DNA of 64,000 nucleotides from assembly GCF_030065545.1 (NCBI RefSeq), contig NZ_JASJNC010000002.1, positions 62,001 through 126,000 of the forward strand. Reading direction: 5' to 3'. The stretch's first letter is position 1. The number at the start of each line of letters is the position of its first letter. The notes below the pieces were generated by a model, which searched no databases, was not told where the DNA came from, and saw nothing but the letters and a program-made list of their open reading frames with translations. The DNA comes from Marinicella marina (GTDB taxonomy: Bacteria; Pseudomonadota; Gammaproteobacteria; Xanthomonadales; Marinicellaceae). The position numbers and the translations under genes were made by a program. This document shows positions 21,056-60,029 of the stretch, piece after piece.

Positions 21056-23941
21056 ATGCAACATACAGATCAATCGGAAAGCCAAGCAAGCACAGTTCAA
21101 GGAACCGAACCCAAATCAACCACCAACGAAAATACCACCACCGACCAACAAAACAGTCGCTTCAAAGTCATCAGAAGAAATGGCAAGGTCACGTCGTATG
21201 ACCAGTCAAAAATTCAGGTGGCAATGACCAAAGCATTTTTGGCGGTTGAGGGCGGTCAAGCGGCTGCCTCCAGGCGCATCAGGGAAACCGTGGAAAAGTT
21301 GGCCGAACAAGTACACTTTGCTTTGTTCAGACACATGGAAGACGGTGGCACCGTTCACATCGAAGACATCCAAGACCAAGTTGAGTTATCAATGATGCGT
21401 GCTGGCGAACACAAAGCGGCACGTAATTATGTTTTGTATCGTGAAAAACAAAACGAAAAACGTGCTCGCGCCAAAGCCAAAGCCGACAAGCAAGACCCTT
21501 CACCTGCAGCAGCGGAAGATGTGTTGCATGTGATTGATGCCAAGGGTAACCGCAAACCACTGGATTTTAATCGCCTTGACACCTTGATCACCGAAGCCAC
21601 CCGTGGCTTGAAAGGTGTGACCAAAGATTTGATTGCCAAAGACGTGCGCCGCAATGTTTTTGATGGCATGGCAGAATCTGATGTCAATGCTTCACTGACC
21701 ATGTCAGCCAGGGCGTTGATTGAAAAAGACCCTAATTATTCTCAAGTCACTGCCCGTTTGTTATTGGATGGCATCCGCACCGAAGCTTTGAGCTTCATAT
21801 ACGGTGAGGAAAAACACGCCACTCAGAAAGACATGAATGAGATTTACCCTGATTACTTCGGTAAATACATCCAGCGCGGTGCTGAATTGAATTTGTTAGA
21901 CAAAGAATTGACCCGTTACGACCTCCCGCGTTTGGCCAAAGCCATTAAACCAGAACGCGATAAAAAATTCACTTACTTGGGTTTACAAACCCTGTTCGAT
22001 CGTTACTTCATCCACATGGGCAAAACCCGCATTGAATTGCCACAGGCATTTTTCATGCGTGTCTCTATGGGCTTGGCGATCAACGAAATCGACCGTGAAG
22101 CCAGAGCCATTGAGTTTTATGACTTACTCTCATCATTCGATTTCATGAGTTCAACCCCAACACTGTTTAACTCTGGTACCTTGCGTCCGCAGTTATCGTC
22201 TTGTTACTTGACCACCGTGCCAGATGATCTGGACGGTATTTTCAGTGCCATCAAAGACGATGCGTTGTTATCTAAATACGCCGGTGGTTTGGGCAATGAC
22301 TGGTCACGTGTTCGTGGCCTGGGTGCGCACATCAAAGGCACCAACGGTGAATCACAAGGCGTGGTTCCTTTCTTGAAAGTGGCCAATGACACCGCAGTGG
22401 CGGTTAACCAAGGTGGCAAACGCAAAGGCGCCATGTGTGCTTATTTGGAAACTTGGCACATCGATATGGAAGAGTTCTTAGAGTTGCGTAAAAACACCGG
22501 TGATGACCGTCGCCGCACGCATGATATGAACACCGCGAATTGGATTCCAGATCTATTCATGGAGCGCGTGGCCAACAATGCAAGCTGGACCTTGTTTTCA
22601 CCTGAAGAAACACCTGAACTGCATGATTTATACGGCAAAGCTTTCAAGGAAAAATACGAATACTACGAACAAAAAGCCGAAGCCGGTGAAATCATCAATT
22701 TCAAAAAAGTCGAAGCCAACGTACTGTGGCGCAAGATGTTAGGCATGTTGTTTGAAACGGGTCATCCTTGGATCACTTTCAAAGACCCATGCAACATCCG
22801 CTCACCACAACAACATGTCGGTGTGGTGCACTCATCTAACTTGTGTACTGAAATCACCTTGAACACTTCCGATGAAGAAATCGCGGTGTGTAATTTAGGT
22901 TCAGTGAACTTGCCGCACCATGTGAATGAAAAAGGCATTGACCATAAGAAATTGAAGAAAACCATCACCACCGCCATGCGCATGCTGGATAACGTGATCG
23001 ATTACAACTTCTATTCAGTGCCACAAGCCAGGCGTTCGAACCTGAAGCACCGTCCAGTAGGCTTGGGTCTGATGGGTTTCCAAGACGCACTGTACATCCA
23101 AGACATGGCTTATGCCACTGAAGAAGCGATTAACTTCGCTGATAACACCATGGAAGCGGTTTCTTATTACGCGATTAATGCCTCCAGTGACTTGGCAGCC
23201 GAGCGCGGTGCCTATCCTTCTTATGAAGGTTCATTGTGGTCACAAGGCATCCTACCCATTGATTCGGTACAAATGCTCAAAGATGAACGCGGTCAATTCA
23301 TTGACCAAGACCAAAGCATGGCGATGGATTGGGATGATCTGCGTGAAAAAGTCAAAGAGCAGGGCATGCGTAACTCCAACACCATGGCCATCGCACCAAC
23401 CGCTACCATTTCAAACATCTCAGGTGTGTCACAATCGGTTGAGCCGGTGTATCAGAACCTGTTCGTGAAATCGAACCTCTCTGGTGAGTTCACCGTGATT
23501 AACCCGTATTTAGTCGAAGACTTGAAAGCGCTGGACTTATGGGATGATGTGATGGTTAACGACTTGAAATACTTCGATGGCAGCGTACAGCCGATCGATC
23601 GTGTGCCGGATCACCTGAAAGCCAAATACGCCACTGCTTTTGAAGTGGATTCGCGCTGGTTGGTTGAAGCGGCATCGCGCCGTCAGAAATGGATTGACCA
23701 AGGTCAGTCATTGAACCTGTACATGGTAGAACCTTCTGGCAAGAAACTGGATTCATTGTACAAACTGGCTTGGGTGCGTGGTTTAAAAACCACTTACTAC
23801 CTGCGTTCAGTCGGTGCAACGCACGTTGAGAAGAGCGTTGATTCCAGCTCTAACCAAGCGCCGGTGGTTGATACCCAGCCCGGTTCAGCAGCGCCACAGG
23901 CCTGTTCAATCCTTGACCCGGATTGTGAAGCCTGTCAGTAA
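21056..23941 (+). CDS. nrdA: Ribonucleoside-diphosphate reductase, alpha subunit (class Ia, two ATP cones)
   Basis: NrdA reduces ribonucleoside diphosphates to deoxy forms. After a hydrophilic N-terminus, two ATP-cone domains (about residues 40-135 and 155-245) suggest allosteric activity control. The catalytic barrel includes SCYLTTVPDDLDGIF with an active-site cysteine, the NLCTEITLNTSDEEIAVCNLGSVNL radical-site region and NSNTMAIAPTATISNISG. The C-terminal shuttle pair is C957-x2-C960 in the last five residues. The 961-residue length fits the long class with a tandem cone. nrdB lies 290 bp downstream on the same strand. The region upstream (275 bp) shows no clear NrdR box. Confidence 0.95.
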   Translation: MQHTDQSESQASTVQGTEPKSTTNENTTTDQQNSRFKVIRRNGKVTSYDQSKIQVAMTKAFLAVEGGQAAASRRIRETVEKLAEQVHFALFRHMEDGGTVHIEDIQDQVELSMMRAGEHKAARNYVLYREKQNEKRARAKAKADKQDPSPAAAEDVLHVIDAKGNRKPLDFNRLDTLITEATRGLKGVTKDLIAKDVRRNVFDGMAESDVNASLTMSARALIEKDPNYSQVTARLLLDGIRTEALSFIYGEEKHATQKDMNEIYPDYFGKYIQRGAELNLLDKELTRYDLPRLAKAIKPERDKKFTYLGLQTLFDRYFIHMGKTRIELPQAFFMRVSMGLAINEIDREARAIEFYDLLSSFDFMSSTPTLFNSGTLRPQLSSCYLTTVPDDLDGIFSAIKDDALLSKYAGGLGNDWSRVRGLGAHIKGTNGESQGVVPFLKVANDTAVAVNQGGKRKGAMCAYLETWHIDMEEFLELRKNTGDDRRRTHDMNTANWIPDLFMERVANNASWTLFSPEETPELHDLYGKAFKEKYEYYEQKAEAGEIINFKKVEANVLWRKMLGMLFETGHPWITFKDPCNIRSPQQHVGVVHSSNLCTEITLNTSDEEIAVCNLGSVNLPHHVNEKGIDHKKLKKTITTAMRMLDNVIDYNFYSVPQARRSNLKHRPVGLGLMGFQDALYIQDMAYATEEAINFADNTMEAVSYYAINASSDLAAERGAYPSYEGSLWSQGILPIDSVQMLKDERGQFIDQDQSMAMDWDDLREKVKEQGMRNSNTMAIAPTATISNISGVSQSVEPVYQNLFVKSNLSGEFTVINPYLVEDLKALDLWDDVMVNDLKYFDGSVQPIDRVPDHLKAKYATAFEVDSRWLVEAASRRQKWIDQGQSLNLYMVEPSGKKLDSLYKLAWVRGLKTTYYLRSVGATHVEKSVDSSSNQAPVVDTQPGSAAPQACSILDPDCEACQ

Positions 23942-24231: not shown

Positions 24232-25476
24232 ATGATGAATTGGGACGATCCGCTCGGACTCGGTAACAATCAAGAGGCAGCCAAACCTCAAATACCTCAA
24301 ACCAACAAAGCACCAGCCGCCAAGCCAGCTGAACCAAAGTCAGCAGCACCAGAGGCAGCTGAAAAACCGGCAGTGGTCACAGAAACCACGGTTAAACCTG
24401 CAGCGACTGAAACTCCAGCTGCAGCGATTAACGTGACACCAGAGAACACCCACCAAAACGCCATGCGTGGTGTGGAACCAGTGCGTGCTGAGGACAAACG
24501 CGTGATCAACGGTTTAACCGATGTGAACCAACTGGCACCGTTCAAATACCCGTGGGCTTGGAAGTTCTTTTTGAACGCCAACAAAAACCACTGGACGCCC
24601 TTGGACATCAACATGACCCAAGACGTCCACGACTACAACAAAACACTGACTGAAGATGAAAAACACGTGTACCAGAACGTGTTGTCCTATCTGACCACTT
24701 CAGACATTCTGGCGATGCGCAACATTGGCCTGGCGGTGATGGAAAAAATGACTGCCCCAGAATTACAAATTTACCAAGCGCGTCAGGTTTATGAAGAAGC
24801 CTTACACACTTGGACCTATCAGCACTGTATTGAGACCATTGGTCTGGACCAAGGTGAAATCTATAACCGCTACCGCGTGATCCCAGAGATCAACCAAAAA
24901 ATCCAAGTCGCTAACCGCCGTTTGGATTCCATCATGCGTCCAGACATCGATTTGAACGACAAAGACGAGATGGAAAACTTCGTGCTGGCCTATATGTTCT
25001 TTGGCGCCGTGTTCGAAGGCTGTTGGTTCTACAACGGTTTCAGCCCCATTTTCGCGCTACAAAGACGCGGCCTGATGAAAGGCACCGCCGAGCAGCTACA
25101 GTACATCATGCGTGATGAAGTGATGCATTGTTCATTCGGTATCCGCGTGGTGAAACAAATCATCGAAGAGAACAACGTCAAACTCGACCCAGCTAAAGTC
25201 CGCGAAATGTGGGACGAGTCTGAGGCCGCTGAAACCACCTACGCCAAATTCCTGCTGCGTCGCCCCATCCTCGGCTACTCCGCCGAAGACCACAGCGAAC
25301 AGTTCCGCTACATCGCCAACCGACGCGCCCGCCAACTCGGCATTGACGAGCCGTTCCCCGGCGCCGAATGCACCCTGTCATGGCTCGATGAACAATCCAA
25401 CTTGAGAAAAGAAAAGAATTTCTTTGAAACAAGGGTGACTGAGTATCAGACCGGTGGGGCTTTGAGTTGGGATTGA
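24232..25476 (+). CDS. nrdB: Ribonucleoside-diphosphate reductase, beta subunit (canonical R2)
   Basis: NrdB houses the di-metal tyrosyl-radical cofactor for NrdA. Aligned by spacing to E. coli R2, the ligands are D84 in TTSDILAMRN, E115 and H118 with the radical tyrosine Y122 in YEEALHTWTY, E204 in AVFEGCW, and E238 and H241 in RDEVMH. The C-terminal tail TEYQTGGALSWD retains a tyrosine in the Y356 region, needed for radical transfer. The first 85 residues are an alanine/proline-rich extension not needed for the fold. CGGAG lies before the double ATG at 24232. A ligand-depleted paralogue occurs at 55651-56772. Confidence 0.95.
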   Translation: MMNWDDPLGLGNNQEAAKPQIPQTNKAPAAKPAEPKSAAPEAAEKPAVVTETTVKPAATETPAAAINVTPENTHQNAMRGVEPVRAEDKRVINGLTDVNQLAPFKYPWAWKFFLNANKNHWTPLDINMTQDVHDYNKTLTEDEKHVYQNVLSYLTTSDILAMRNIGLAVMEKMTAPELQIYQARQVYEEALHTWTYQHCIETIGLDQGEIYNRYRVIPEINQKIQVANRRLDSIMRPDIDLNDKDEMENFVLAYMFFGAVFEGCWFYNGFSPIFALQRRGLMKGTAEQLQYIMRDEVMHCSFGIRVVKQIIEENNVKLDPAKVREMWDESEAAETTYAKFLLRRPILGYSAEDHSEQFRYIANRRARQLGIDEPFPGAECTLSWLDEQSNLRKEKNFFETRVTEYQTGGALSWD

Positions 25477-36520: not shown

Positions 36521-36913
36521 TTATTCGACCATACAAAACGCATTCAATTTGTTGCCATCCAAGTCCCTGAAATAACCGGCATAAAAACCTTTGTCAGCGT
36601 TTTCAGGGCGGAAGCCTGGTTTGCCCTCATCGGTGCCACCTAATTCAAGCGCCTTTTTGTGAAATGCATTTACTTGCTCGGGTGTTTTTAAAAAAACCGC
36701 CACCATGGTGCCGTTGCCGGCGGTCGCAGGTTCTTTGTTAAAAGGTTTTGTGATGGCCATACCAGCTTCTTCGATGGCCGGTGACCAAGCCACAAAATAG
36801 TTTTCCTCCTCCATCGAACGACCCACGCCGATGGACTTAAACAGCTCATCATAGTAAGCGGTGGCTTGAGGTAAATCGTTAGTTCCTAAAGTGACGTATC
36901 CAATCATTTTCAT
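36521..36913 (-). CDS. VOC-family (glyoxalase/dioxygenase-like) protein
   Basis: The 130-residue protein has the beta-alpha-beta-beta-beta pattern of the VOC superfamily. It starts KMIGYVTLGTNDLPQATAYYDELF and ends GYFRDLDGNKLNAFCMVE, with the usual C-terminal metal-ligand glutamate replaced in the DGNKLNAF segment. The ATG at 36913 has AGGAGC just upstream and is preferred over a longer frame to 36970. It is divergent from the WYL regulator, and the pair probably forms one detoxification or antibiotic-resistance unit. The substrate is unknown. Confidence 0.8.
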   Translation of the reverse strand: MKMIGYVTLGTNDLPQATAYYDELFKSIGVGRSMEEENYFVAWSPAIEEAGMAITKPFNKEPATAGNGTMVAVFLKTPEQVNAFHKKALELGGTDEGKPGFRPENADKGFYAGYFRDLDGNKLNAFCMVE

Positions 36914-36994
36914 TGCTCCTGTTGTTGTGTTGTTAAAAATGCCATTGTAAAAAAGGTCTACTGACAGCATGGTGTCAGCAGTGTTTTGCTAAGC

Positions 36995-37000
36995 TATAAT
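36995..37000 (+). promoter_or_regulatory. Candidate -10 (TATAAT) of the WYL-regulator gene
   Basis: TATAAT at 36995-37000 lies 28 bp before the ATG at 37028. The -35 element is weak. Confidence 0.35.
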
Positions 37001-37027
37001 TATTACCATTACACTTAAAAATGAATC

Positions 37028-37717
37028 ATGAGAAGAGCTGACAGACTGATGAAAATCACCCACTACCTGCGCCAACGACGACAGGCTGTTACCGCCAAAC
37101 AAGTGGCTGAGGCTTTTGATATTTGCCAACGCACGGTGTATCGAGACATCCAATGCCTGATGGACAGTGGTGTACCCATCCGTGGTGAGGCTGGTGTCGG
37201 TTACACCATTGATAAAAAGTATTACCTGCCACCGATAACTTTTGATGCCGATGAATTAGAAGCCATTGGCTTGGGTATCAATATGGTTCGGCAATGGACT
37301 GACGATCGGTTTGCTGAAAAAGCGGCCAGTGCCTTTGCAAAAATAGAGGCCGTGCTACCAACTGCACTGCAAGGTGAATTGAAACAAATCACCACTTATG
37401 CCGTACTCAACCAACCGATCCGAACTTGGAGCGTTAGCTTTTCAGAATTGCGTGAGCACATTCGCGCAAAGACCAAGCTCGAAATTGAATACGTTGATCA
37501 GCATAATCATGAAACCATTCGAGTGATTAATCCTTTGGCCTTGTTCTTTTTTAACCCAGTCTGGCTGTTGTTAGGTTGGTGTGAAAAACGCCAAGATTTC
37601 CGCAATTTCCGCCTGGATCGAATTCGTTCTACAGCAATCACAGAGCAAAAATTTGTTGATGAAGTAGGCAAGAATCTTTCGGCTTATTTGGTCTCGGTGG
37701 GTGTGTGCCATGAATGA
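37028..37717 (+). CDS. YafY-type HTH/WYL-domain transcriptional regulator
   Basis: An N-terminal winged helix (MRRADRLMKITHYLRQRRQAVTAKQVAEAF and ICQRTVYRDIQCLMDSGVPI) is followed by a linker and a WYL domain (VINPLALFFFNPVWLLLGWCEKRQDFRNFRLDRI). WYL domains bind nucleic acids or small ligands and control stress genes. Length (229) and order match the YafY group. The divergent VOC gene, 114 bp away, is the natural candidate target. Confidence 0.88.
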   Translation: MRRADRLMKITHYLRQRRQAVTAKQVAEAFDICQRTVYRDIQCLMDSGVPIRGEAGVGYTIDKKYYLPPITFDADELEAIGLGINMVRQWTDDRFAEKAASAFAKIEAVLPTALQGELKQITTYAVLNQPIRTWSVSFSELREHIRAKTKLEIEYVDQHNHETIRVINPLALFFFNPVWLLLGWCEKRQDFRNFRLDRIRSTAITEQKFVDEVGKNLSAYLVSVGVCHE

Positions 37718-54649: not shown

Positions 54650-54974
54650 CCGCACTTGACGGCAACCATACAAACGGTTGAAAGCGGGCAAAATAGCCAG
54701 TTGATATTGGCTAAAATGAAAATAACTAAAATTGTGCCCTAAAACGGCAGTCTATTTATTGGCACAGTTTTTTAAACCTTGAGATAGCTGGTAAATGTGA
54801 TTTTTAAACATAAAACATCTACTTTTTAACAGTAGTTTTCATTGTTTGTCTTATCGGTGTTGTTCAATACTGTTTGAATGACTATCATTAATTATGTGTT
54901 CAGTTATTAAATTTCTAACTGTTCATAAAGTAAGCTTTGAGCGGTCAGTAGAGATTAATTTGGAGGTATCAACA
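54650..54974. other. Intergenic region before the 54975 gene
   Basis: A hairpin TAGCCA-GTTGATAT-TGGCTA is at 54694-54713. A reading frame from 54894 runs into the 54975 gene, but its earlier codons lack a ribosome-binding site. Nothing else is recognised. Confidence 0.5.
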
Positions 54975-55403
54975 GTGAGCAATTTTTCAGGTAAAGATTT
55001 ATTTATTGAAATGATGAACTGGGACTTTATCGGTCCTGGCAATCAGTTTAAGAAAGGCATGTTAATGAATGATCATGGCAAACGTTTATTGATCAAACAA
55101 GTCTATCCAAAGAAATCCCCTGCTTTTGTTGATGTGTTCATGCAATACGCCCATGTGGTTTCAGTCAATGGCCAGTTGAAACTTGATCCAGGCGTGGTGT
55201 TGGGTTTCGATGTCAAAAATAAAACCATTCATCCAGTGCTTTATCGCAATGATTTATTGGATCACACCATCAGCGTCTATGACAAAGATGGCTTGAACCA
55301 AGACAAAGCTGATTGGTTATTGGAGTATTGGTCGGCTTGGTTTGATGAACTCAAATCAGGTGACTATGATTACCTTGATCAAGCCCAATTGAAGACCGGT
55401 TGA
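54975..55403 (+). CDS. Conserved-looking protein of unknown function
   Basis: Not recognised. GTG at 54975 is chosen because TGGAGG lies 8 nt upstream, giving 142 residues (SNFSGKDLFIEMMNWDFIGPGNQ...). Earlier in-frame ATGs from 54894 lack a ribosome-binding site. It is mostly beta-rich with FDVKNKTIHPVLYRNDLLDH and a C-terminal helical segment WLLEYWSAWFDELKSGDYDYLDQ. No signal peptide. Confidence 0.55.
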   Translation: MSNFSGKDLFIEMMNWDFIGPGNQFKKGMLMNDHGKRLLIKQVYPKKSPAFVDVFMQYAHVVSVNGQLKLDPGVVLGFDVKNKTIHPVLYRNDLLDHTISVYDKDGLNQDKADWLLEYWSAWFDELKSGDYDYLDQAQLKTG

Positions 55404-55650: not shown

Positions 55651-56772
55651 TCAGTCCCAACTCAAAGAACCGCCTTCGTGTTCATCGGCGTGTTCTTCTT
55701 GATGGCGGTCCTGATCATTGACTTTGACTTGTCCGTCTAACCAGGGCAGTGCGTTTTCAGCGCCAGGGAATGGCTGAATCATGCCCAGTGCAGCAGCACG
55801 TTGGTTGGCAATGTAACGGTGTTGTTCCATGTGTTCATCGGCACTGTAGCTACTGATGGGTTGTTTGAACAGGAAGTTGACGTATTTCTGTTCGGCAGCT
55901 TCAGCTTCTTCCCACATGTTCTTGACTTTGATTGGGTCGAGTTTGAGGTTGTTTTCTTTCAGAATTTGTTTGATGGCACGGATGCCAAAAGCATAATGCA
56001 ACGATTTGTCGCGCATGATGAACTGAAGCATTTGGGCGGTGTTTTTCATCAGGCCACGGCGCTGAAAGGCGAAAATCGGACTGAAACCGTGGTACAACCA
56101 ATTGCCTTCAAACACCACTGAGAAGAACAAGTAAGCCATGGTGAATTTTTCAAGCTCAACTGGGTCATTGAGATCTAAATCAGGACGCATAACAGGTTCC
56201 AGGTAACGGTTGGACATCTGTATTTTCTGGTCAATTTCTGGAATCAGGCGGTAACGGTTGTATAAGTCACCCTGGTCTAAACCAATACCCTCAATACAGT
56301 GTTGATAAGCAGAAGTGTGCAAGCCTTCCTCATAAATTTGACGAGCCTGGTAAATTTGTAATTCTGGTGCCGTCATTTTTTCCATCACAGCCAGACCGAT
56401 GTTGCGCATCGCCAAGATACCTGAAGTGGTCAAGTAGGACATGACGTTTTGAAACACATGTTTTTCTTCTGTGCTCAAGGTGTTGTTGTAATCTTGGACA
56501 TCTTGCTCCATCTTGATGTCCAAGGGCGACCAATGATTTTTATTGGCATTAAGAAAGAAGTTCCAGGCCCAAGGGTATTTAAATGGGGCTAATTGGTTGA
56601 CGTCGGTCAGGCCATTGATGACGCGCTTGTCCTCGGCCTTCACTGGCTCTACTGATGAGGATTTAGGAGCAGCAGGTACCGCCTGGACTTGATCATTTTC
56701 TGGTTTATCTTGTGTCGATTTATTGTTGCTGTTGTTTGATGAAGATAGCGGATCGTCCCAAAGGTTGCTCAT
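55651..56772 (-). CDS. NrdB-like protein with two lost metal ligands (second R2 paralogue)
   Basis: The protein is about two-thirds identical by eye to the NrdB at 24232-25476 across the ferritin-like core. At the D84 position (E. coli numbering) it has glycine (TTSGILAMRN; codon GGT), and at the E238 position lysine (RDKSLH; codon AAA). E115, H118, Y122 (YEEGLHTSAY), E204 (VVFEGNW) and H241 remain. The C-terminal tail EHEGGSLSWD keeps the R1-binding residues but lacks the tyrosine present in the canonical tail (TEYQTGGALSWD). The start at 56772 has AGAGAA upstream and matches MMNWDDPL of the canonical protein. It lies 31 kb from nrdAB without an R1 partner. Confidence 0.9.
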   Translation of the reverse strand: MSNLWDDPLSSSNNSNNKSTQDKPENDQVQAVPAAPKSSSVEPVKAEDKRVINGLTDVNQLAPFKYPWAWNFFLNANKNHWSPLDIKMEQDVQDYNNTLSTEEKHVFQNVMSYLTTSGILAMRNIGLAVMEKMTAPELQIYQARQIYEEGLHTSAYQHCIEGIGLDQGDLYNRYRLIPEIDQKIQMSNRYLEPVMRPDLDLNDPVELEKFTMAYLFFSVVFEGNWLYHGFSPIFAFQRRGLMKNTAQMLQFIMRDKSLHYAFGIRAIKQILKENNLKLDPIKVKNMWEEAEAAEQKYVNFLFKQPISSYSADEHMEQHRYIANQRAAALGMIQPFPGAENALPWLDGQVKVNDQDRHQEEHADEHEGGSLSWD

Positions 56773-56954
56773 AAAATTCTCTGTTGATTTGAAGCTCAAT
56801 ATTATAGGTAATCAATGATGAAAGCCCAATCAAAAATAGCAGTTTTAAATACTAATAGCCAATCACTTATGCACCACTGAACGGATTCATGTTCAATGGT
56901 GCCTATTTGTTTCAGTAAGCGGTTTTATTGGTTCAAGGTGTATGATCTGTTTTA

Positions 56955-59900
56955 TTAATCCTCGCAGCTGTTTTGTTGATTGTCTATACAGGCGCCACTG
57001 ATAAAAAAGCGCCAATCCTTGATCGGTTTGATGCCTTCAGCAGTGACAGTGTCTGTATTGAGGTGGCTGGTGAGGTAATACAGCCTTTGGATGTCATCTT
57101 TTTCTGCCGGACCCACATGCGCATCACTGAAACGATCTTGTAAATAAACCGGTGGTATGGACTGGTTATACAGCTTCACTGTGACGTGACTGAACTGGTT
57201 TTTTTGTTCAGTGCTTAATTTCATTACATATTTCAAACGGTCTTTGCCAGTGAGGTTTTTGTCACTGTAGTCTTTGTCCTTGGCCGCCTCGCCCAGTAAC
57301 ACACCCAACATTTGGATGTAGGGTGATTGGCTGTCGAGATAAAATTGTGGATCAAAGCCTTTGGCCCTGATGCGGTTGTCTTTTTTATCACTAACCCGTC
57401 GCATGAATGAGGTGGTGTTGTGACCGGCAGAATCTTGGATGATCTCTTGGTAAATTTGCACTTGGTCTTGTGCATCAATCACCTGATAATGAGGTTGATA
57501 GGTGGATTGTCCAGCACCGCCCTGTTCGGTTGAAAGTGGCTTATCGGTGCTGCCTTCCAAAATCACACCCAGTGCATTGCTGCGGCCTGATGCCCACAGG
57601 ATTTCGCCTGATTTGCCATGTGCCACAGCTTCGATAAACACCCGCCTGAAACCCACACCTGAGGGCAGAAAGTGGCCTGTTTTATTTTCTATTTCGACCG
57701 ATAAATCAATGGTGTTGTCATCCAGCCATTGCATGTGGGTGATTGACACGTTGGCGGTTTGTTGGGTGGCCATTTCAATCATTGAGTCGCGGCCTGTTAT
57801 CAAAGCTGGTTGCACATCGTTGTTAACCATGTAGTCCATTTGACGCAAACCTAAAATCATGGGGAACTGCTGGAACATTTCATTCAAAAAGACATTCAGA
57901 CCATGCAAAGAATGCCGAGCAAATTTATCCCGTGGTGTCAGCGTGATGTCTTTATTGGGTAGGCGATGGGTGGTGGGCGCAAAGTCACTGCTTTCTATAT
58001 TGGCAATGCGCATGTCTTTTAATTCGTGATAAGTGTCACCGACATCAAACTTTGTGGGCATGTGACAATCCTGACAACTTTCGAACGAACCTTTCTTTGA
58101 AAAGTCAGAATTAACCCATTCGAGGTGGGTGGTTTGTTCATAGGTGGCATTAACCACCAAGCCACCCGGTGCGGTGTGCTGGTGCGGTGTGCCATCATTG
58201 TTAAAGGTTGGCAGCAGGATGTTATGACAAGAACCACACATGTCGGAATTCTGAATTTGGGCGCCGAATTGTGGTGTGATGTCCAAGGCATTTTGCATTG
58301 GTTGGGTAATCACACTTTCACTGGCATAAGGTCCAACCACTTGGCCTGGTTGATTGGTGACAAAATTACCGGTATATCCCGATTCAGTGCCCAGCCCTTT
58401 GTCATCAATTTGATGACAGACCATGCATGAAATGCCATCACGCGCCAGGGCGCCGTATTTCGCATCATGATTATTGGGTGGATCATCTTGCCATTGGGTG
58501 ACCATTGATTTGGCCATGGGCTGGCCAAAGGGCACACCCTCTGGTGGTGCCACAGCAAAAATATCTTTGCACGCTTCGGAGGCCGGTGTGTCAATCGCTA
58601 ACTGTCTTTGGCCCATGACGCCATGACAATGCAAACAGGTGTTTTCTATACATTTTTTGGCCGCTGGTAAGTTGTTGGTTTCACTTTGTAGCTGGGAGAA
58701 GAAAATCGGATCGCGTCCAGCCAAACCCATGGGAGAAACACGCCACTCGCCATAGGGCGATACGTTGATCTTAAGTTTACTTTTCGGCTTCTTGGTTGAT
58801 AAGTTTGATTTATCAATCAACATATTGGCTTCGGCCGAATTGGCGTAAGTGGCATCGTGGCAGTTGATGCACTGGTCAGAGGTAAGGAATTGGTCCAAAC
58901 CGCTGCGCATGGATAAATTGTGATCAAAGGTTTCAGCTGGAAAACGCAAAGGCCAGGCTTGTGCATAGTCTTTGATGCCTAAATCACCAAAATAAGCCTC
59001 AAAGTTGGGGTTGATGGTGGTCAATGGTTGCGAGAATATTGGTTGGTATACAGTGACTTGTTTGGCATCATCCAATGGCTGGCTGTGCAGCGATTCTCTC
59101 TGTTGAGGTGCGGTTATACTTTTATCAAGTGGGTACCATTTGTAACGCAGTCCTGCGGAAACAATGTTGTCCAAAGATGAAAAAGTCATTTCATTGACTG
59201 CTGTGGCATGGCAGTTGATACACGCTGCGCCATATAAGTTATAAGGATAGACAATGGTATTGATTTTTTCTTTATCGCTAAAATCGTAACCAGTAGGAAA
59301 CCAGTGTTGGTTTGGCTTAACGGGGTCAGAGGGCAGGGCGCCAGGGTCAGTGAATGCCGATTTATCAACAACCGGCGGGTTGCCATCACCGGTCATGGTT
59401 GGATTGGCATAATACCAGCCATCATGGGTGGTGTTGGTTCGATACATCACGGTCCAAGAAGAGGGTAGCCGCTGATCATCAGTTTTGATCTGCATGCAGT
59501 TATCTGGTTTTTCCACGCCTAATGCCGCATCAATATTGGCCATTTCTTTGATGATCATGGCACCAAAAGGTAACTCGCCCTCTCTGCCGGCACATAACCA
59601 GGCCACCATTTCAGGTGAATAGTAAACGCGAACCGCTGGATGAACGCCATAGCTTTTGCCCTCACCAAAGGGGCCTTTGTAGGGGCCGGTCAAACGCCAG
59701 TCGCGGTCATGGGCCCAATTGAGTTTGTGGTCATAAACCCTGGCTCTGAGAAAATCGCGTAATTGAAAATCAAAGGCGTTCTTTTTCTCCATTTCAGTCA
59801 ATTGTCCGGGTTGCAGCGTGAAGCCAATTGCATCGCGCCAAGCCAATGCTTCAGGTGTTGGTTCATTGATTGCACACCATTTTTGACTGGCTGCTGCTGT

Positions 59901-60029
59901 TTTGGATTCATCGGGTTGTGAGCAGACCCAATCAGCCGGCTTATCCGGCAAGTCAGCAGAAGCTTGTGCTTGAGATTCGGTACCAAAGAGCGACACCGTG
60001 AGCAGTAAAATAAAAAACAATATGTGCAT
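56955..60029 (-). CDS. Exported hexahaem c-type cytochrome
   Basis: The 1024-residue protein has a signal peptide (FFILLLTVSLFGTESQAQA) and six CxxCH haem-binding motifs, with first cysteines near residues 270, 387, 465, 535, 598 and 652. The haem domain is followed by a beta-rich C-terminal part (about 730-1020) with no haem sites. It probably works in the periplasm or at the outer membrane in electron transfer. The partner oxidase or reductase is not visible. A shorter one-haem protein at 37821-39434 has a related plan. Confidence 0.85.
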   Translation of the reverse strand: MHILFFILLLTVSLFGTESQAQASADLPDKPADWVCSQPDESKTAAASQKWCAINEPTPEALAWRDAIGFTLQPGQLTEMEKKNAFDFQLRDFLRARVYDHKLNWAHDRDWRLTGPYKGPFGEGKSYGVHPAVRVYYSPEMVAWLCAGREGELPFGAMIIKEMANIDAALGVEKPDNCMQIKTDDQRLPSSWTVMYRTNTTHDGWYYANPTMTGDGNPPVVDKSAFTDPGALPSDPVKPNQHWFPTGYDFSDKEKINTIVYPYNLYGAACINCHATAVNEMTFSSLDNIVSAGLRYKWYPLDKSITAPQQRESLHSQPLDDAKQVTVYQPIFSQPLTTINPNFEAYFGDLGIKDYAQAWPLRFPAETFDHNLSMRSGLDQFLTSDQCINCHDATYANSAEANMLIDKSNLSTKKPKSKLKINVSPYGEWRVSPMGLAGRDPIFFSQLQSETNNLPAAKKCIENTCLHCHGVMGQRQLAIDTPASEACKDIFAVAPPEGVPFGQPMAKSMVTQWQDDPPNNHDAKYGALARDGISCMVCHQIDDKGLGTESGYTGNFVTNQPGQVVGPYASESVITQPMQNALDITPQFGAQIQNSDMCGSCHNILLPTFNNDGTPHQHTAPGGLVVNATYEQTTHLEWVNSDFSKKGSFESCQDCHMPTKFDVGDTYHELKDMRIANIESSDFAPTTHRLPNKDITLTPRDKFARHSLHGLNVFLNEMFQQFPMILGLRQMDYMVNNDVQPALITGRDSMIEMATQQTANVSITHMQWLDDNTIDLSVEIENKTGHFLPSGVGFRRVFIEAVAHGKSGEILWASGRSNALGVILEGSTDKPLSTEQGGAGQSTYQPHYQVIDAQDQVQIYQEIIQDSAGHNTTSFMRRVSDKKDNRIRAKGFDPQFYLDSQSPYIQMLGVLLGEAAKDKDYSDKNLTGKDRLKYVMKLSTEQKNQFSHVTVKLYNQSIPPVYLQDRFSDAHVGPAEKDDIQRLYYLTSHLNTDTVTAEGIKPIKDWRFFISGACIDNQQNSCED

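What the first reader, a model, noticed from the sequence alone, without database searches (positions are those of the whole stretch)
55651..56772. Second NrdB that has lost two metal ligands and the C-terminal relay tyrosine
Seen directly: where the canonical NrdB at 24232-25476 has D84 and E238 (E. coli numbering) this copy has Gly and Lys, both verified codon by codon on the minus strand (GGT, AAA). The Y122 position, H118, E115, E204 and H241 remain, and the R1-binding C-terminal tail (GGSLSWD) is kept but the tail tyrosine is lost. Established: class Ie R2 proteins lose three of the four carboxylates (VPK or QSK variants, with Lys at a comparable position) and use a metal-free DOPA radical. 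Inference: this may be a non-canonical or metal-poor R2, or a decoy subunit that competes for NrdA.
Basis: partly seen in the sequence, partly recalled or inferred. Interest (0 to 1): 0.8.

Follow-up and report, generated by a model that had tools for sequence, protein, structure and literature searches.

The report
Radical-dead second NrdB in Marinicella
This marine bacterium carries, beside its normal ribonucleotide reductase small subunit, a second copy whose radical-making and radical-passing residues are replaced in the same way in five related genomes while its docking tail is kept, so it probably works as a helper or brake for the enzyme that makes DNA building blocks rather than as an enzyme itself.

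Summary
Confirmed. The minus-strand ORF 55651-56772 encodes a 373-aa NrdB paralogue, 60% identical to the canonical NrdB at 24232-25473, with Gly for D84, Lys for E238 and His for the tail tyrosine Y356. The other ligands, Y122, W48, D237 and the C-terminal tail GG(A/S)LSWD are kept. The genus is Marinicella. Five of 18 Marinicella genomes carry the gene; all five copies share the three changes, and no canonical copy read has any. Of 369 gammaproteobacterial genomes, 67 hold this NrdB type, and only the window's paralogue has the Lys. The gene arose by duplication within Marinicella, is under purifying selection (omega 0.078 against 0.034 for canonical copies) and has its own conserved promoter-like block. 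The linker before the Y356 position has drifted to 38% identity (99% in canonical copies), while the docking tail is retained. So it is neither decaying nor class Ie, which keeps the Asp and changes three Glu. Best reading: a radical-dead R2 that still docks on NrdA, probably as a mixed dimer with canonical NrdB, comparable to yeast Rnr4. Binding, dimerisation and outcome (assembly helper, brake or competitor) are inferred, not shown.

The parts
55651..56772 (-). Paralogous NrdB (pseudo-R2, 373 aa plus stop)
   Evidence: (PF00268, 181.9 bits); omega 0.078
56419..56421 (-). Gly118, position of metal ligand D84
56005..56007 (-). Lys256, position of metal ligand E238, in motif MRDK..H
55678..55680 (-). 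His365, position of radical-transfer tyrosine Y356
56305..56328 (-). Retained E115, H118, Y122 cluster (E149 to Y156), with W120S and T121A inside it
55681..55734 (-). C-terminal linker (residues 347-364) just before the Y356 position, drifted: 38% mean identity among 5 paralogues, 99% among 8 canonicals
55654..55677 (-). Retained C-terminal tail (residues 366-373), presumed NrdA-docking peptide
56799..56830 (-). Conserved promoter-like block of the paralogue (TTGGGC, 17 nt, TATAAT, 28 nt before the ATG; the first hexamer fits the sigma-70 consensus poorly)
   Evidence: not listed by the consensus scan
24232..25476 (+). Canonical NrdB with all ligands intact
   Evidence: NF005550, 363 bits, cut-off 309
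21056..23941 (+). NrdA (R1), the likely docking partner

Best explanation
It is a pseudo-R2: an NrdB duplicated within the genus that keeps the R2 fold and the C-terminal peptide that docks on NrdA, but can no longer build the normal dimetal-tyrosyl cofactor or pass a radical to NrdA. It most likely acts by subunit replacement: it pairs with canonical NrdB in a mixed beta-beta-prime dimer (or alone as beta-prime2) and occupies NrdA, so it helps assemble, tunes or limits ribonucleotide reduction; yeast Rnr4 is the functional model. Shown here by sequence: the losses, their fixation in five genomes, purifying selection, the retained tail, a predicted R2 fold and a conserved upstream block. Inferred: no cofactor, no radical transfer, dimerisation with NrdB, binding to NrdA, and the regulatory outcome.
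For: G/K/H at the D84/E238/Y356 positions in 5 of 5 paralogues; of 127 R2 ORFs read (duplicate loci included) 108 show the intact set, 16 are copies of the five paralogues and 3 have a gap from truncation. 155 columns are invariant in 88 canonical proteins; 119 stay identical in all five paralogues and 11 are fixed to another residue, among them D84, W120, T121, F208, E238 and Y356. Linker 38% against 99% identity, docking tail 85% against 100%. Omega 0.078 in 5 paralogues, 0.034 in 8 canonicals (final values; first-pass 0.083 and 0.037). Conserved upstream block, one exact hit in each of 5 carriers (the pattern was built from them). Predicted R2 fold, pLDDT 79.2, pTM 0.77, against 77.9 and 0.73 for the canonical control; best PDB match is an R2. 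Y356 is described as essential and the E. coli enzyme as engaging one half at a time (PMC8463856 passages). Yeast Rnr4 and Plasmodium PfR4 are described as R2s lacking key residues yet part of alpha2-beta-beta-prime complexes (PMC3824934 section 22).
Against: No interaction, expression or activity data. Only 5 of 18 genomes carry it, so it is dispensable in the genus (3 of the other 13 gave no R2 match at all and are not true absences). Retention of the other ligands is not above background: 119 of 155 canonical-invariant columns are kept anyway. Enrichment of fixed changes in ten catalytic positions is modest (3 of 10 against 8 of 145, Fisher p = 0.024) and not blind, because the three losses were known from the finding. 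Counting any non-conserved column instead of fixed changes gives no enrichment (p = 0.70). The dimer interface was not tested; the models were single chains.
Confidence: 0.6

Rival explanations
1. Pure decoy: a beta-prime2 homodimer that competes with canonical NrdB for NrdA and works as a brake, without mixed dimers.
For: Docking tail conserved while the radical-transfer linker drifted; an upstream block of its own, with no exact hit elsewhere in the genome.
Against: About 69% identity to canonical NrdB over residues 39-373 makes mixed dimers hard to avoid if both are expressed; no expression data.
Confidence: 0.2
2. A still-active R2 with unusual chemistry: metal-free (Lys as surrogate cation, as in class Ie) or a mononuclear metal bound by E115, H118, E204 and H241, forming a radical at Y122.
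For: Lys sits in the same RDK position as Lys213 of M. florum R2e (inferred from passages); Y122, W48 and D237 kept.
Against: The tail tyrosine described as essential is His in 5 of 5; the Asp that class Ie keeps is Gly; pocket residues W120, T121 and F208 are changed. nrdI was not looked for.
Confidence: 0.06
3. A decaying duplicate on its way to loss.
For: Omega about twice that of canonical copies; patchy presence, 5 of 18; long stem branch.
Against: Intact ORF in 5 of 5 with synonymous sites near saturation (pS 0.67-0.79), omega 0.078, conserved upstream block, same three derived residues in all five.
Confidence: 0.06
4. A new function unrelated to ribonucleotide reduction (for example an R2lox-like oxidase or a metal-handling protein).
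For: Four potential metal ligands remain; the nearest PDB folds include class Ic Mn/Fe R2s.
Against: The docking tail is retained, and the R2lox models of NCBIfam score far below their cut-offs, 51.4 bits at best against 194.
Confidence: 0.08

Closest known systems
NrdB of NCBIfam NF005550 (PRK07209), the canonical Marinicella NrdB
   Same: Direct parent: 60% identity over the whole alignment, 69% over residues 39-373, same tail; the paralogues branch within Marinicella canonical NrdB
   Different: D84G, E238K, Y356H and W120S/T121A/F208L; all five paralogues score 266-294 bits, below the 309-bit cut-off that the window's canonical copy passes at 363
Yeast Rnr4 and Plasmodium PfR4 (R2_e2)
   Same: An R2 paralogue lacking key radical residues beside a competent R2 (PMC3824934 section 22)
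   Different: Separate origin, eukaryotic, a different set of lost residues (recalled for Rnr4); complexes shown experimentally there, not here
Class Ie R2 (VPK/QSK)
   Same: Lys in place of the Glu of RDE..H
   Different: Class Ie changes three Glu and keeps the Asp (Asp88) and the tail Tyr; here the Asp is lost, two Glu are kept and the Tyr is lost
Short NrdB of Candidatus Liberibacter asiaticus, and the truncated beta-prime of an E. coli strain cited in the same paper
   Same: An NrdB form without function; the authors suggest a regulatory heterodimer and cite half-site behaviour of an E. coli beta/beta-prime dimer (PMC5154197 passages)
   Different: The Liberibacter form is a 125-aa fragment, over 99% identical to the 3' end of the long copy, and the E. 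coli form is truncated; here a full-length, diverged protein has residue-level losses and keeps its tail

Membership tests
Ribonuc_red_sm (PF00268) | Score over the Pfam gathering cut-off | tested here: met
   181.9 bits against 33.6
NF005550 equivalog (functional NrdB of this type) | Score over the curated cut-off of 309 bits | tested here: not met
   266.2, 266.8, 275.3, 265.6 and 294 bits for the five paralogues
Metal-dependent class I R2 | Four carboxylate and two His metal ligands | tested here: not met
   D84G and E238K in 5 of 5
Functional class I R2 | C-terminal tyrosine Y356 | tested here: not met
   His in 5 of 5
Class Ie R2 | Three Glu ligands replaced by V/P/K or Q/S/K, Asp kept | tested here: not met
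   E115 and E204 kept, Asp replaced by Gly; definition
Class Ie R2 | NrdI partner and DOPA at Y122 | not tested
   nrdI was not searched for; DOPA needs protein
Rnr4-like beta-prime subunit | Lacks residues for the cofactor, coexists with one competent R2 in the genome | tested here: met
   Two R2 matches in G000, one intact; G009, G015 and G016 also hold an intact copy, G007 (91% complete) shows none
Rnr4-like beta-prime subunit | Forms a heterodimer with the competent R2 and binds R1 | not testable with these tools
   Tail retained, but no complex could be modelled or measured
R2lox | Score over the NCBIfam R2lox cut-offs | tested here: not met
   Best 51.4 bits against 194

The most novel reading that the evidence does not exclude
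A new kind of R2 chemistry: with Asp84 gone and Lys238 in the site, the four remaining ligands (two Glu, two His) hold a mononuclear or metal-free cofactor at Y122, and the radical leaves by a route that does not use Y356, for example through His365 or through the partner subunit of a mixed dimer.
Probability: 0.06. Interest if true: 0.9.

Novelty: new variant of a known kind. Interest (0 to 1): 0.58.

Why it matters
R2 paralogues that lack radical residues but assemble with a competent R2 are reported from yeast and Plasmodium. A full-length case fixed across several bacterial species would show that the same solution arose independently in bacteria, and would give a small, testable system for asking what a dead beta-prime subunit does: assembly, half-of-sites control, or a brake on dNTP supply. 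Five literature searches aimed at bacterial inactive or extra R2 copies listed no full-length dead NrdB from bacteria; I looked at the listings and at passages of one paper from them on this question, about the short Liberibacter NrdB. The library lacks most subscription journals, so this is weak evidence of absence.

Tried and rejected
Class Ie membership: rejected on the residue pattern.

Decaying duplicate: not favoured, on conservation, omega and upstream block.

Mobile or phage origin: the best listed match was 32% identity among phage records and 57% among plasmid records; the best place of every matching record was below 60%. All six IMG/VR R2s found have the intact residues. The trees put the paralogues within Marinicella. 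Transfer between Marinicella lineages is not excluded for G015.

Regulation by NrdR: a comparison with a recalled 16-base consensus reached at most 11 of 16 in the five upstream regions and 9 of 16 before nrdA of the window; no evidence. A first version of the upstream-block pattern had a wrong spacer and found nothing; one search is the corrected search.

Functional linkage to the neighbour 54894-55400: found in 10 of 18 Marinicella genomes, six of them without a detected paralogue; rejected.

Correlation with lack of class II RNR: no second PF02867 hit in four of five carriers (G007, G009, G015, G016), but G007 and G015 are 91 and 81% complete; a second hit is present in carrier G000 and lacking in non-carrier G010; inconclusive. 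Only the G000 gene was confirmed as NrdJ. Hits in G005 and G008 are fragments and cannot be counted safely.

Label and number errors of mine: the column called W48 is the Trp of KYPWAW; the Trp of NHW(T/S)P, the true W48 equivalent, was checked (W in 125 of 127 rows, gap in 2). The ten catalytic positions in the Fisher test were entered by hand under this label; both Trp columns are W wherever present. Canonical residue numbers printed are one too low, because that row starts at the second Met; this report uses the numbers. The omega values are first-pass estimates; the final ones are.

Rows dropped before counts: the 88 canonical proteins leave out identical rows, rows under 330 residues and the viral rows.

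Full report
What is there. The minus strand at 55651-56772 encodes a 373-residue R2 protein (PF00268, 181.9 bits), 60% identical to the canonical NrdB at 24232-25473, which follows nrdA (21056-23941). A PF00268 search of the whole genome gives two matches, both in this window. Records of relatives name the genus as Marinicella: three of the four other carriers are titled Marinicella and the fourth only Gammaproteobacteria. E115, H118, Y122, E204, D237, H241 and W48 remain.

Conservation. Of 18 Marinicella genomes (the window's and 17 others, among 151 genomes searched), five carry the paralogue (G000, G007, G009, G015, G016); the four others are 75-81% identical to the window copy. Three (G004, G005, G008) gave no R2 match at all and are not true absences. 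All five copies have the G/K/H triple. Among 127 R2 ORFs read from all loci then held, duplicates included, 108 have the intact set, 16 are copies of the five paralogues, and 3 have a gap from truncation. In a pattern survey of 369 gammaproteobacterial genomes, 67 hold this NrdB type; only the window's paralogue has RDK in place of RDE. That survey sees only this NrdB type and exact codon patterns, and the genomes are an even draw from a larger group; other kinds of R2 were not surveyed.

Origin and selection. In a careful tree of 42 rows the five paralogues form one clade (100/100), with the canonical NrdB of G006 nearest (97/93). A tree that keeps the 14 canonical Marinicella NrdBs together without the paralogues is rejected (p-AU 0.012); that group was chosen after a first tree had been seen. 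The first, wider tree (98 rows, quick) also places them inside Marinicella (95 for the set of nine rows). So the gene is most simply a duplicate made inside the genus, with a long stem on which all three changes occurred. G015 is out of step: its paralogue groups with G000, its canonical copy with G010; it is an 81% complete bin with 4% contamination, so mixing or transfer is possible. Synonymous differences between paralogues are near saturation (pS 0.67-0.79), yet omega is 0.078 (5 sequences) against 0.034 for 8 canonical copies. This is purifying selection, somewhat relaxed.

Where it changed. Of 358 alignable columns, 155 are invariant in 88 non-redundant, non-viral canonical proteins. In the paralogues 119 of these are unchanged, 25 vary, and 11 are fixed to a different residue: T122S, D158G (D84), V186I, W194S (W120), T195A (T121), E209D, F266L (F208), E296K (E238), F358H, R364Q and Y405H (Y356), in canonical residue numbers. 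Six of the eleven lie at the cofactor, its pocket or the transfer path by recalled E. coli numbering; the pocket positions were picked after seeing them. For ten catalytic positions the count of fixed changes is 3 of 10 against 8 of 145 (p = 0.024), but the three were known from the finding, and counting any departure gives p = 0.70. Keeping the other ligands is not by itself above background. The clearest contrast is in the C terminus: the linker just before the Y356 position (residues 347-364) has 38% mean identity among the five paralogues and 99% among eight canonical copies, while the last eight residues have 85% and 100%. Docking appears to be kept and radical transfer released.

Structure. 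AlphaFold2 gives the R2 helical fold for both proteins (paralogue pLDDT 79.2, pTM 0.77; canonical control 77.9, 0.73); the N- and C-terminal stretches of both have low confidence. The best solved match is the R2 of 6y2n, 36% identity, TM-score 0.92 by target length. Site geometry and dimers were not examined.

Expression unit. The gene has its own upstream region. In a 300-base alignment of the five carriers the conserved part is a block 27-58 bases before the ATG, in the window TTGGGC-17-TATAAT (56829-56801, minus strand), with TATAAT in all five. The derived pattern has one exact hit in each carrier and none in the other 13 Marinicella genomes; two looser hits (two mismatches) lie elsewhere in G016 and in G010. 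Since the pattern came from the five, only its being single-copy is informative. TTGGGC matches the usual first hexamer at 3 of 6 positions, and the generic promoter scan did not list this site.

Interpretation. Passages that I read state: all class I RNRs characterised keep the Y356 equivalent and it is essential, and the E. coli enzyme engages one half at a time (PMC8463856); class Ie R2 replaces three Glu (PMC11846895); in M. florum Lys213 stands next to Arg211 and Asp212 in number, and Asp88 is required in a computational study (PMC8902622). Thus the Lys here is at the class Ie position but the rest of the pattern differs. One section that I read says that yeast Rnr4 and Plasmodium PfR4, R2s lacking key residues, are part of alpha2-beta-beta-prime complexes (PMC3824934, section 22). 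By analogy the Marinicella protein is most likely a beta-prime subunit; whether it assists or restrains the enzyme cannot be told from sequence. A pure competitor is the main rival.

Membership. It belongs to the R2 superfamily by Pfam, fails the NCBIfam cut-off of its parent family in 5 of 5 copies, fails class Ie and R2lox, and meets only the sequence half of an Rnr4-like definition.

Noticed in passing
window 54894-55400 (+) and 36524-37714: A weakly DUF6908-like gene convergent with the paralogue, and a pair of genes 18 kb away in the window, lie beside or near the paralogue in G007, G009 and G016, so the locus has been rearranged; the first gene is also found in six Marinicella genomes without a detected paralogue.
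   Followed up: partly
G015 (loci L006, L036, L043, L051): The paralogue of G015 groups with that of G000 while its canonical NrdB groups with G010: a mixed bin or transfer between lineages.
   Followed up: partly
G000:C12:211010-213553 (L177:411-2954): A class II NrdJ (TIGR02504, 553 bits) is in the window's genome; a second PF02867 hit is seen in 11 of 18 Marinicella genomes, with G005 and G008 (fragments) unclear, and not in G007, G009, G010, G015 and G016.
   Followed up: partly
window 56955-60029 (-): A 1024-aa protein with several CxxCH motifs and weak MtrC/MtrF-like and cytochrome matches lies upstream of the paralogue.
   Followed up: no
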